Shown in pieces: positions 54,570 to 64,000 of a DNA stretch of 64,000 bases (positions are counted from its first letter, which is position 1; every line of letters begins with the position of its first letter). The translations under genes and the position numbers were made by a program. The stretch comes from an uncultured Burkholderiales bacterium (GTDB lineage Bacteria > Pseudomonadota > Gammaproteobacteria > Burkholderiales > Burkholderiaceae_C). Under the pieces are notes generated by a model. The model was given only the letters and a program-made list of their open reading frames with translations, made no database searches and had not been told where the DNA came from. The stretch covers positions 39,410 to 103,409 of the forward strand of contig CAIJQQ010000044.1 in assembly GCA_903822825.1 (NCBI GenBank), given 5' to 3'.

Positions 54570-55934
54570 TCAGGGCGCCAGCAGGCTGTTGATGTTGGCC
54601 ATGTCTTCGGCCTTGAGCACGCCTGCGGCCTGGCGCAGCTTGAGCTGGCCGACCAACACGTCGTAACGGGCTTTGGCCAAATCGCGTTTGGTTTGGTAGA
54701 GCTGGCTTTGGCTGTTGAGCACGTCGATGTTGATGCGCACACCCACTTGGTAACCCAGCTTGTTGGCATCCAATGCCACTTGGCTGGAGCTTTCAGCCGC
54801 TTCGTAGGCCTTGACCTGGCCGAGACCCGATTGCAGGCCCAGGAATGCTGTGCGGGTGGCCTGGGCCACTTGTCGCTGCGCGCCTTCAAAGTCGATGCGG
54901 GCTTTTTCCTCGAGGGCCACGGTCTCGCGCAAGCGGTTTTGGGTGGCCAGACCTGCAAACAAAGGCAGGTTCAAGCTCAACCCCGCGCTGGACACGGTGA
55001 CTTGGTTGGAGTTGCTGCCCAGGTTGGTGGTGGACGTGCCGTTCAGGTTCTTTTGGACGTTGTAGCCGAGCGTCAAATCGACGGTGGGTTTGTGGCCGGC
55101 CATGGCTTTTTCGGACTCCAGCTTGGCAATGTCCAGGTTGGCCTTGGCCAACAAGATGCTGGGGTGGGCTTGCTCGCTTTGGACGATCCAGCCGTCAACG
55201 CCATTGGCTTCGACGCCAGGCAGGGTCGTGTTGAGTTTCAGGCGCAGCGGCGTGAGGCCGTTTTTGCCGACCAACAATTCGAGCGCGACTTTTTTCACAC
55301 GCAGGTCATTGTCGGCCGCGATTTCTTGGGCGATCACCAGGTCATAGCGCGCTTGGGCTTCGCGCGTGTCGGTGATGGTGGCGGTGCCCACTTCGAAGTT
55401 GCGCTTGGCGCTGGCCAATTGCTCGGCCACGGCGGTCTTTTGCGCTTGCACAAAGGTCAGGCTGTCTTGCGAGGCCAGCACGTCAAAGTAAGCTTGGCTC
55501 ACCCGCACGATCAGGTCCTGCTCTGCTTGGCTGAGCGAAGCCTGGGCGGCATCCAGCCCTTTTTGGCTTTGCTGGTACACCGCCAAGTTGGCTGGGCGGT
55601 ACAGCGGTTGGGTGGCGTTCACGCCCGCAGTTTGCGTCGTGTAGGCGCGGTTGGACAAGGCGGGGTTGTAGGGCGTCAGGTCAAAGTTGGAGCGCGTGGC
55701 ACCCGCCGAGAAGCCGATTTGCGGCAGCAGCTGCGCCTTGCCCTGGTCGGCTTTGGCCAGGTTGGCGTCGTATTGCGACTTGGCCGACTGGAAGCTGGCG
55801 TCATAGCCCTTGGCCAGGTTGTACAGGTCCACCAGGCTTTGCGCCTGGCTGCTGCCGGCAAAGGCCAGCGACAACACCAAGCTCAGGGGCAGTTGGCGAA
55901 ACAGGGATGAGGGGCGGGACAGCAGCATGGACAT
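54570..55934 (-). CDS. tolC: TolC family outer membrane protein
   Basis: SLVDLYNLAKGYDASFQSAKSQYDANLAKADQGKAQLLPQIGFSAGATRSN; OEP repeats. Confidence 0.94.
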   Translation of the reverse strand: MSMLLSRPSSLFRQLPLSLVLSLAFAGSSQAQSLVDLYNLAKGYDASFQSAKSQYDANLAKADQGKAQLLPQIGFSAGATRSNFDLTPYNPALSNRAYTTQTAGVNATQPLYRPANLAVYQQSQKGLDAAQASLSQAEQDLIVRVSQAYFDVLASQDSLTFVQAQKTAVAEQLASAKRNFEVGTATITDTREAQARYDLVIAQEIAADNDLRVKKVALELLVGKNGLTPLRLKLNTTLPGVEANGVDGWIVQSEQAHPSILLAKANLDIAKLESEKAMAGHKPTVDLTLGYNVQKNLNGTSTTNLGSNSNQVTVSSAGLSLNLPLFAGLATQNRLRETVALEEKARIDFEGAQRQVAQATRTAFLGLQSGLGQVKAYEAAESSSQVALDANKLGYQVGVRINIDVLNSQSQLYQTKRDLAKARYDVLVGQLKLRQAAGVLKAEDMANINSLLAP

Positions 55935-61323: not shown

Positions 61324-62108
61324 GGTGATTCCGTCAGTGAGAGGCCACGCACCAGCAGCTGGGCGTGTTGTGTGATGAAGGCTTCGGGGTCGATCTGCGT
61401 GGTCTGCGGGCAGCAAGGGCCCATCGAGTGTTTCCACATGATCAAAAAGAGCAAAGGGGTGATGACCGAATGCACAGCCAAGTCAAGGTCAACGGGGCGG
61501 AACTCTTGGTGGTCGATGCCCCGCTGCAGCACCGCTCGCACCATGGCGTGGCCGGGTGCGATCACCTCTTCTTGGAAGAAGCGGGCGAGGTCCGGGAAAT
61601 TGTTGGCTTCGCTCATGATGAGCTTGGAGATGCCAGACGCTTTGGTGGCGCCATAGCGCCGCCACCATTCGAGCATCAAAAACGCCAGCAACTCTCCTGA
61701 GCCGCCTTCGAAACGGGCGATTTCTTCGGCGCCTTCGTTCTGGTGCTTGACCAGGTTTTCGCGTACCACGGCTTTGAACAGGTCTTCCTTGGTCGGAAAG
61801 TACAAGAACAAAGTGCCTTTGGACACGCCGGCACGCACAGCCACCTCTTCCACGCGTGTGGCCGCAAAGCCTTTTTCGACGAACAAATCGAGCGCCGACT
61901 CCAGCAGTTCGCCGGGGCGGGCCTCTTTGCGGCGTTCGCGTTTGTGGGGGAGGGTCAGGTCGGACAAGGCCGTCAACTGGTTAATGACTCGAAGGTTAGT
62001 AATGTAGGTGCTGGCACAGAGATCGTCAACATCAACCTTGTGAATACACCGTAAAGCTCGCGACAAAGATTCGACAGGATCAGGGTATTCACTGATAAAT
62101 GCCTTCAA
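61320..62108 (-). CDS. TetR/AcrR family regulator (true start probably internal, around 61970)
   Basis: GELLESALDLFVEKGFAATRVEEVAVRAGVSKGTLFLYFPTKEDLFKAVV. Confidence 0.9.
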   Translation of the reverse strand: MKAFISEYPDPVESLSRALRCIHKVDVDDLCASTYITNLRVINQLTALSDLTLPHKRERRKEARPGELLESALDLFVEKGFAATRVEEVAVRAGVSKGTLFLYFPTKEDLFKAVVRENLVKHQNEGAEEIARFEGGSGELLAFLMLEWWRRYGATKASGISKLIMSEANNFPDLARFFQEEVIAPGHAMVRAVLQRGIDHQEFRPVDLDLAVHSVITPLLFLIMWKHSMGPCCPQTTQIDPEAFITQHAQLLVRGLSLTESP

Positions 62109-62131: not shown

Positions 62132-63427
62132 ATGAACCAGCAACTGTTCCGCCTCGAAGTGATGCAAGCCCGCCAAGCCTCTTGGCTGGGCGGGATCTGC
62201 ATGGGCAAGAACCCCGGCTTCAGCCTGGTGGCGGGTGTGGCGCTGACCTTGGCAGGCGCTTTGGTGGCTTTTGCCGCCTGGGGCCAAGTGGCCCGCAAGG
62301 CCCGCATCCCGGGTGTGCTCATGCCTGTGCAAGGCACCGTGCAGCTCAGTGCCCATGCTGCAGGGGTACTGACCGAGCAACTGGTGCAAGAAGGCGAACA
62401 CGTCAGCGCAGGCCAAGCCCTGTTTGTCCTGGGCACTGACCGCACCACCGCTGAAGGGTCGGCCGCCGTGCTGCTGGCGGCCCATTTGGCCCAACGCCGC
62501 AGCACATTGGAAGCCGAACGCACAGCACGTGTGCAGCAAACCCGCCAAAGAGAGGCCGCCCTGCAAGAGCGCATCCGGGCGCTGGACAACGAAATCATTC
62601 AAGCCCAGCAAGAAGCGCTGCTTGCCAGCCGCCGGGTGGCCTTGGCCCAAAAGACCTTGGGCCGCTACCAACAAATGGCCCAAGAAGGCTTTGTGTCAGA
62701 CATCCAGGCCCAAAACAAACAAGAAGAACTTATTGACCTGCAAGCCCGGGTCGAAAACACCCAACGCAATGCCGCCACCTTGCAACGCGAACAACAAAGC
62801 CTGCAAGCCGAGCGGCAAGCCAACCAACGCCAACTGAACATCGACCTGGCCCAGCTGGACCGCGCCTTGGTCAGTCTGGCGCAAGAAGGCACAGAAAACC
62901 AGTCACGCAAAACCATCGTCATCACCGCACCCCAGTCAGGCGTGGTCTCCACCATCCACCTGCCCAAAGGCGCGTCCGTCCAGGCGGGCCAAAGCGTGGC
63001 CACACTGGTGCCGGTGGATACAAGCGGCCAAGGCAAAACAGAACTGCAAGCCAACCTGTACGCCCCTAGCCGCACGGCAGGCTTTGTCCAGCCTGGGCAA
63101 ACCGTGTGGATGCGCTACGGCGCCTACCCCTACCAAAAGTTTGGCCTGGCCCAAGGCCTGGTGCACAGCATCAGCGCCACGCCCACGGCCCCGCAAGACC
63201 TGCCCAACGGCCAGAGCGCAGCGCTGCAAACCGCTGCACAAACGCAAGAACCGCTGTACCGCATCCAGGTGCAGCTGAAGGATCAAAGTATCACCGCCTA
63301 CGGCTACAAGCTGCCCCTGAAAGCCGGCATGACGTTAGAAGCCGATGTGGTGCAGGAAAAGCGGGCAGTGTGGGAATGGGTTTTTGAGCCAGTGCTGGCA
63401 GCACGGCAAAAAGTGAAGGTTCTGTGA
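62132..63427 (+). CDS. HlyD/CvaA family bacteriocin-export adaptor protein
   Basis: MNQQLFRLEVMQARQASWLGGICMGKNPGFSLVAGVALTLAGALVAFAAWGQVARKARIPGVLMPVQGTVQLSAHAAGVL...; single N-terminal TM plus coiled coil plus barrel-sandwich, CvaA-like. Confidence 0.9.
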   Translation: MNQQLFRLEVMQARQASWLGGICMGKNPGFSLVAGVALTLAGALVAFAAWGQVARKARIPGVLMPVQGTVQLSAHAAGVLTEQLVQEGEHVSAGQALFVLGTDRTTAEGSAAVLLAAHLAQRRSTLEAERTARVQQTRQREAALQERIRALDNEIIQAQQEALLASRRVALAQKTLGRYQQMAQEGFVSDIQAQNKQEELIDLQARVENTQRNAATLQREQQSLQAERQANQRQLNIDLAQLDRALVSLAQEGTENQSRKTIVITAPQSGVVSTIHLPKGASVQAGQSVATLVPVDTSGQGKTELQANLYAPSRTAGFVQPGQTVWMRYGAYPYQKFGLAQGLVHSISATPTAPQDLPNGQSAALQTAAQTQEPLYRIQVQLKDQSITAYGYKLPLKAGMTLEADVVQEKRAVWEWVFEPVLAARQKVKVL

Positions 63428-63496
63428 TCGGTATGGCCATGCATGGTGCGTGGCTGACCGAATGCGGAAAAGGGTGAAAACCGAAGGGGAAATAAA

Positions 63497-63625
63497 ATGA
63501 AAGTATTGAGTGATAGTGAGTTGGAGAATGTTTCTGCTGGTTTATTATTTTTGATAGCTATGTGGGCTGCATCACATAATGGCGGTGCTTATACCGAAGA
63601 CCGCGGCGCGGGTGCCTGGGGATAA
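63497..63625 (+). CDS. Putative microcin/bacteriocin precursor with VSAG (double-glycine-type) leader
   Basis: Manual translation: MKVLSDSELENVSAG|LLFLIAMWAASHNGGAYTEDRGAGAWG*; RBS-like GAAGGGGA 7 nt upstream; directly after the CvaA-like gene. Confidence 0.7.
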   Translation: MKVLSDSELENVSAGLLFLIAMWAASHNGGAYTEDRGAGAWG

Positions 63626-63638
63626 TTTTTAAAACTTT

Positions 63639-63670
63639 AATTGCCTCGGAAATATATTTCCGAGGCAATT
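63639..63670. terminator. Perfect 32-bp palindrome (terminator/attenuator) after the peptide gene
   Basis: AATTGCCTCGGAAATA|TATTTCCGAGGCAATT. Confidence 0.65.
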
Positions 63671-63687
63671 AAAAATTGGTTGAAGAT

Positions 63688-64000
63688 ATGCCTTACATTT
63701 TAACTCAAGTGCTAATTCAATTGCCATTTTTGGGTGCTGCAAGTGGGATCTGCTTTTTATTATTGTATCCAATTTCGGAAATTAATTTTATTGGCGTCAT
63801 TGCCTTGTGTTTAATCACTCCAATAGCAATAAGCATATTTTCAATTTATGCGTATTATAACATAAATGAAAAATTTGGATTTTCAAGAGAGTTTTCAATT
63901 AATTACATAAAAAATATATTATACTCTTTTTTACTTGTGTTAAATTCAATTGTAATTATCATTGCAATTTTTTTGATCACCGATTGGGCATCAATTAATA
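63688..64000 (+). CDS. AT-rich multi-TM protein, truncated by window end (candidate immunity/export membrane protein)
   Basis: Open frame from ATG 63688 to window end: MPYILTQVLIQLPFLGAASGICFLLLYPISEINFIGVIALCLITPIAISIFSIYAYYNINEKFGFSREFSINYIKNILYSFLLVLNSIVIIIAIFLITDWASIN... Confidence 0.65.
   Translation, partial: MPYILTQVLIQLPFLGAASGICFLLLYPISEINFIGVIALCLITPIAISIFSIYAYYNINEKFGFSREFSINYIKNILYSFLLVLNSIVIIIAIFLITDWASIN

What the first reader, a model, noticed from the sequence alone, without database searches (positions are those of the whole stretch)
62132..63625. Putative new microcin locus: CvaA-type exporter adaptor followed by a 42-aa leader peptide gene
Sequence shows an HlyD/CvaA-like adaptor (62132-63427). 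After it comes a good RBS and a 42-codon ORF, MKVLSDSELENVSAGLLFLIAMWAASHNGGAYTEDRGAGAWG, absent from the supplied ORF track (which lists nothing under 60 aa). MKxLSDSELENVSAG fits the bacteriocin-type leader (MrEL.xxE.xxVSGG), with AG instead of GG, recognised by C39-peptidase ABC exporters that pair with CvaA-type adaptors (established knowledge). The core would be about 27 aa: hydrophobic first half, Gly/charged second half ending GAGAWG. I recognise no characterised microcin with this core. The internal NGG gives an alternative cleavage site.
Basis: partly seen in the sequence, partly recalled or inferred. Interest (0 to 1): 0.8.

Follow-up and report, generated by a model that had tools for sequence, protein, structure and literature searches.

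The report
Limnohabitans bacteriocin export locus, cut at contig end
This is the front half of a bacterial peptide-export locus, an adaptor gene followed by a tiny gene for a leader-tagged peptide (probably a bacteriocin); its matching peptide-cutting exporter lies at the end of another contig, and related bacteria carry different peptides or even an enzyme in the same slot.

Summary
The genome's only C39-peptidase ABC exporter sits at the extreme end of another contig (C5). Its flanking genes match those after the adaptor in two relatives, so C44 and C5 almost certainly face each other across an assembly gap. In 17 other genomes of the genus a leader-peptide gene lies between adaptor and exporter, including the three closest (one split by an IS30-like element). 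The 42-aa ORF occupies that slot, 69 bp after the adaptor, with a Shine-Dalgarno-like site and a strong hairpin behind it. It is the best leader match of 5,232 start codons in the window. GC falls from 62% to 27% after it, and a cut-off membrane ORF (possible immunity gene) follows. Cargo varies: microcin-like peptides, two of them beside MchC-like and HlyC-like (siderophore-microcin-type) genes, and a leader-tagged phospholipase A2. No relative of the 27-aa core was found. Unproven: antibacterial activity, cleavage after the non-canonical AG, and the gap content. New member of a known kind (class II microcin-like, C39-exported peptide locus).

The parts
62132..63427 (+). HlyD/CvaA-type membrane-fusion adaptor, 431 aa (start at 62132 by comparison with relatives; a longer frame opens at 62099)
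   Evidence: Pfam HlyD_3, NCBIfam TIGR01843 below cut-off; 87% identical to adaptors next to a C39 exporter in G043 and G065
63480..63496 (+). Shine-Dalgarno-like AAGGGG and spacer before the peptide start
   Evidence: sequence; similarly placed purine-rich stretch in G062
63497..63625 (+). 42-aa precursor peptide: leader MKVLSDSELENVSAG (15 aa) plus 27-aa core LLFLIAMWAASHNGGAYTEDRGAGAWG
   Evidence: best leader-matrix score of 5,232 starts; same position as leader peptides of relatives
63636..63673 (+). perfect inverted repeat, probable transcription terminator or attenuator behind the peptide gene
   Evidence: fold z-score -7.2; the whole-genome DNA search found it only here; not flagged by the simple terminator scan
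63690..64000 (+). N-terminal 104 aa of an AT-rich membrane-protein ORF cut by the contig end; candidate immunity protein
   Evidence: hydrophobic segments around residues 8-26, 35-53 and 80-98; no homologue in 90 genus genomes; no significant Pfam match
54570..55934 (-). TolC-family outer-membrane protein; could serve as the outer-membrane exit, but not part of the cluster
   Evidence: TIGR01844 303.9 bits, over its cut-off

Best explanation
The locus is a C39-peptidase ABC export system with a changeable cargo slot. Shown or strongly supported by sequence: the adaptor gene (62132-63427) and the genome's only C39-peptidase/permease/ATPase gene (contig C5) are two ends of one locus broken by an assembly gap, and the 42-aa ORF is the first cargo gene in the slot between them. 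Inferred: the peptide is made as a precursor; the C39 domain recognises the 15-residue leader and cuts after ...VSAG; the 27-residue core (hydrophobic first half, Gly-rich polar tail) is pushed through the exporter, adaptor and a TolC protein out of the cell, where it acts as a bacteriocin on related bacteria. The membrane protein encoded just behind, cut by the contig end, protects the producer. The low-GC cargo cassette has been exchanged by horizontal transfer while adaptor and exporter stayed.
For: One C39 gene in the genome, at a contig end, with the catalytic triad spacing of CvaB: C12, H85, D101 against Cys32, His105, Asp121 (triad from PMC9746304). Shared order in G043 and G065: RND pump, TetR region, adaptor, cassette, C39 exporter, 628-aa protein, dehydrogenase, LysR. 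C5 ends 10 bp before the exporter start, in sequence that no longer matches G062 or G065. Leader peptides lie between adaptor and exporter in G043, G062, G065 (split by an IS30-like element) and 14 further genus genomes. DNA between adaptor stop and peptide start is alignable in the closest four. GC 62% adaptor, 46% peptide, 27% after it, 61% exporter; a similar dip to 28-39% occurs in G043. 9 of 15 leader residues match G043's leader.
Against: The two contigs are not physically joined; no overlap was found between the ends. The leader ends in AG, whereas known class II microcins have GG or GA (PMC10233263); one relative has QGSG, so only mild deviation is precedented here. The core is short and no homologue was found. 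No sequence shows antibacterial activity; GG-peptides can be signals, biofilm factors or autolysis peptides (PMC10233263, PMC4997328, PMC11798529). The immunity assignment rests on position and hydrophobicity only.
Confidence: 0.68

Rival explanations
1. The 42-aa ORF is a genuine exported leader peptide but a signal, biofilm or self-lysis peptide, not a bacteriocin.
For: Such roles are known for double-glycine peptides: Synechococcus biofilm proteins (PMC4997328) and gonococcal Nap autolysis peptides that do not kill competitors (PMC11798529). A 27-aa core is short.
Against: Hypervariable core and whole-cassette exchange, neighbouring membrane genes, and siblings in the same slot with siderophore-microcin-type maturation genes or a phospholipase A2 point to conflict rather than signalling. 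No sensor kinase was noticed beside the adaptor.
Confidence: 0.17
2. The ORF is a decayed or dummy precursor: AG instead of GG and a short core mark a dead copy, and the real cargo lies in the unsequenced gap.
For: AG differs from GG by one base when aligned to G062. G065's precursor is disrupted by an IS30-like element, and Limnohabitans WS1 has a deletion fusing adaptor codon ~345 to exporter codon ~645, so these loci do decay. Some relatives carry two leader peptides (G071, G109).
Against: Intact start, ribosome site, complete frame and a strong hairpin directly behind it.
Confidence: 0.1
3. Chance ORF with no coding function behind an unrelated adaptor.
For: In shuffled 64-kb windows the best leader-like start reaches up to 13.5 bits against 15.2 here. 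No conservation of the core.
Against: It lies exactly in the slot where the related loci have a leader peptide, with ribosome site and hairpin.
Confidence: 0.03

Closest known systems
Moraxella catarrhalis McbABCI bacteriocin operon (PMC2761928)
   Same: Adaptor, C39 ABC exporter, short double-glycine peptide and short immunity gene as one unit; immunity protein without database relatives
   Different: There the order is adaptor-exporter-peptide-immunity and the precursor is 101 aa; here cargo lies between adaptor and exporter, the precursor is 42 aa with AG, and activity is untested
Colicin V (microcin V, class IIa): CvaA/CvaB/TolC export
   Same: Same exporter type, catalytic triad spacing, adaptor type and leader type
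   Different: Leader ends AG not GG; unrelated and much shorter core; betaproteobacterial host
Class IIb (siderophore) microcins H47 and E492
   Same: Sibling loci G043 and G065 carry MchC-like and HlyC-like (MceI/MchD-type) genes in the cassette
   Different: None found in the window's assembled genome (the HlyC search had no positive control and the gap is unseen); the 42-mer lacks the Ser/Gly-rich tail
NHLP bacteriocin exporters (TIGR03794, TIGR03796)
   Same: Best NCBIfam match of the exporter and second-best of the adaptor
   Different: Far below both cut-offs (464.7 of 853.3; 74.9 of 156.2), and the leader is not of the nitrile-hydratase type

Membership tests
Class II microcin | Leader of 15-18 aa with the conserved double-glycine-leader pattern | tested here: met
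   15.2 bits, best of 5,232 starts; 9 of 15 identical to G043's leader
Class II microcin | Cleavage motif GG or GA at the end of the leader | tested here: not met
   AG; definition GG or GA from PMC10233263. One genus relative has QGSG
Class II microcin | C39-peptidase ABC transporter with Cys/His/Asp triad | tested here: met
   Single copy on C5, triad spacing equal to CvaB; linkage to the window is by synteny, not by a joined contig
Class II microcin | HlyD/CvaA-type membrane-fusion protein | tested here: met
   62132-63427
Class II microcin | TolC-type outer-membrane channel in the cell | tested here: met
   TIGR01844 over cut-off at 54570-55934
Class II microcin | Small membrane immunity protein next to the peptide | tested here: inconclusive
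   Hydrophobic ORF cut by the contig end, no homologues found
Class II microcin | Antibacterial activity and producer immunity | not testable with these tools
   needs experiment
Class IIb siderophore microcin | MchC/MceJ and MchD/MceI maturation genes and Ser/Gly-rich tail | tested here: inconclusive
   Not found in the assembled genome (HlyC search without positive control); gap unseen; tail of the 42-mer not of that kind
NHLP bacteriocin system | NCBIfam equivalog cut-offs for exporter and adaptor | tested here: not met

The most novel reading that the evidence does not exclude
In Limnohabitans and its relatives a fixed adaptor-exporter pair acts as a launcher with an exchangeable cargo slot that is loaded with mechanistically different weapons: short microcin-like peptides (the window's 27-aa core being the shortest seen), siderophore-type class IIb-like microcins far outside Enterobacterales, and a leader-tagged phospholipase A2 enzyme.
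Probability: 0.45. Interest if true: 0.65.

Novelty: new member of a known kind. Interest (0 to 1): 0.45.

Why it matters
Characterised class II microcins come from Enterobacteriaceae (PMC9746304). I found no paper in the searched library that describes bacteriocins of Limnohabitans, a common freshwater genus. If the locus works as proposed, it gives a directly testable peptide, with its exporter, in a planktonic betaproteobacterium, and a natural series of cargo swaps behind one exporter. It also shows how assembly gaps at low-GC cargo cassettes can hide such loci from genome-mining tools that need peptide and exporter on one contig.

Tried and rejected
No exact overlap exists between the contig ends. 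Search for the 42-mer in a 400-genome family sample and in plasmids gave only chance-level hits. Search for the partial membrane ORF in 90 genus genomes gave only itself. Search for MchC-like and HlyC-like genes in the own genome found only weak matches, the first probably SelO itself (the HlyC control rang nowhere, so absence is not shown). NHLP membership was considered and rejected on cut-offs. The simple terminator scan missed the hairpin. Whether the membrane protein of the 60%-identity group is a CAAX-protease-like immunity protein stayed open (PF02517 best E=0.012, 3 of 7 members). Paper searches for Limnohabitans bacteriocins and for class II microcins in Betaproteobacteria gave nothing relevant.

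Full report
Where the window lies. The window is G000:C44:39410-103409 and C44 ends at 103409, exactly at the window's end. The nearest named relatives are Comamonadaceae bacterium PBBC1 and Limnohabitans sp. WS1 and Rim8, so the host is a Limnohabitans-like member of Comamonadaceae.

The observation. The adaptor and the 42-codon ORF are present as described. The adaptor matches HlyD families but stays below the cut-offs of the specific NCBIfam models. The ORF starts 69 bp after the adaptor's stop codon, has AAGGGG shortly before its ATG, and is followed by a perfect 17-bp stem. GC falls from 62% in the adaptor to 46% in the peptide gene and 27% behind it.

The exporter. The genome holds one C39-peptidase gene, a 700-aa peptidase/permease/ATPase on contig C5, starting 10 bp from that contig's end. 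Its triad C12/H85/D101 has the spacing of CvaB's Cys32/His105/Asp121 (PMC9746304). In G065 (one 3.4-Mb contig) and G043 the order is RND pump, TetR region, adaptor, cassette, C39 exporter, 628-aa protein, dehydrogenase, LysR. C44 carries the left part and C5 the right part of this order. Adaptors are 87% and exporters 94% identical to those of G043 and G065. I infer that C44 and C5 face each other; the gap is not closed.

The slot. Between adaptor and exporter, leader peptides were found in 17 other genomes of the genus: G043 (61 aa), G062 (128 aa), G065 (split by an IS30-like element; the downstream fragment still reads ...DELELVDGG followed by a Gly-rich core), G017 (139 aa), and a group of 13 with about 57-62%-identical adaptors and mostly 65-70-aa peptides (61 aa and two copies in G071) with MRxLNxxELNEVQGG-like leaders. 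Relatives in other families also have such peptides between or just ahead of the pair (G109, G078, G084, G086, G092). The DNA from the adaptor's end to the peptide start can be aligned among the window, G043, G062 and G065, while the cores cannot. A matrix made from relatives' leaders ranks the window's ORF first of 5,232 starts; shuffled windows reach at most 13.5 bits against its 15.2. The motif alone is therefore moderate evidence, motif plus position strong.

Cargo kinds. G043 and G065 carry, inside the cassette, an HlyC-family protein (PF02794, over cut-off) and a SelO-like or MchC-like protein; that of G043 matches annotated MchC proteins of enterobacterial plasmids (36-37% over about 190 residues, E down to 7e-20). 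MchC/MceJ with the HlyC-like MchD/MceI attaches the siderophore to class IIb microcins (PMC3281104). G062's leader peptide is fused to a prokaryotic phospholipase A2 domain (PF09056, E=1e-13) with the CDNHDFNY stretch, followed by a protein whose start looks like a signal peptide. Homologues of that enzyme in a 301-genome family sample occur in one other genus only and match only the enzyme part. MchC-like proteins were found in 2 of 301. These siblings make a weapon-like role more likely for the slot as a whole.

Loss. Limnohabitans WS1 has a deletion that joins adaptor codon ~345 to exporter codon ~645, G065's precursor is split by an IS, and many genus genomes have no close adaptor. The system is dispensable, as bacteriocin loci usually are.

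Mechanism and its limits. The most likely reading is a class II microcin-like bacteriocin with a 27-aa core, cut after AG, exported through the C39 exporter, the adaptor and a TolC protein (one lies at 54570-55934), with immunity from the cut-off membrane ORF. Shown by sequence: the genes, their order, the leader, the triad. Inferred: linkage across the gap, cleavage, export, killing, immunity. The definition of class II microcins asks for GG or GA (PMC10233263), which is not met; I therefore say it works like one and do not file it as a class II microcin in the strict sense.

Novelty. The architecture is known (colicin V; Moraxella McbABCI, PMC2761928), and double-glycine peptides with C39 exporters are known to be widespread (PMC10233263). 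New are the peptide, the host group, and the range of cargo behind one exporter.

Noticed in passing
L051:467-853 (G062:C71): Phospholipase A2 domain (PF09056) fused behind a double-glycine leader in the cargo slot, followed by a protein with a likely signal peptide that could be its immunity protein.
   Followed up: partly
L040:6206-8670 (G043) and L039:11792-14283 (G065): HlyC-like acyltransferase and MchC-like protein beside microcin-like peptides: siderophore-microcin-type maturation genes in Comamonadaceae.
   Followed up: partly
L039:10250-11330 (G065): IS30-like element inserted in the first codons of the precursor peptide gene, leaving adaptor and exporter intact.
   Followed up: partly
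L035:8001-9171 (Limnohabitans WS1): Deletion scar fusing adaptor codon ~345 to exporter codon ~645; cassette lost.
   Followed up: partly
L041-L045, L053, L054 (60%-identity group): A conserved membrane protein of about 180 aa between adaptor and leader peptide, faintly CAAX-protease-like (PF02517 E=0.012), a possible immunity protein.
   Followed up: partly
L046, 11571-12506 on the reversed strand (G017): A 311-aa protein behind a 139-aa leader peptide; by eye TraB/GumN-like, not scanned.
   Followed up: no
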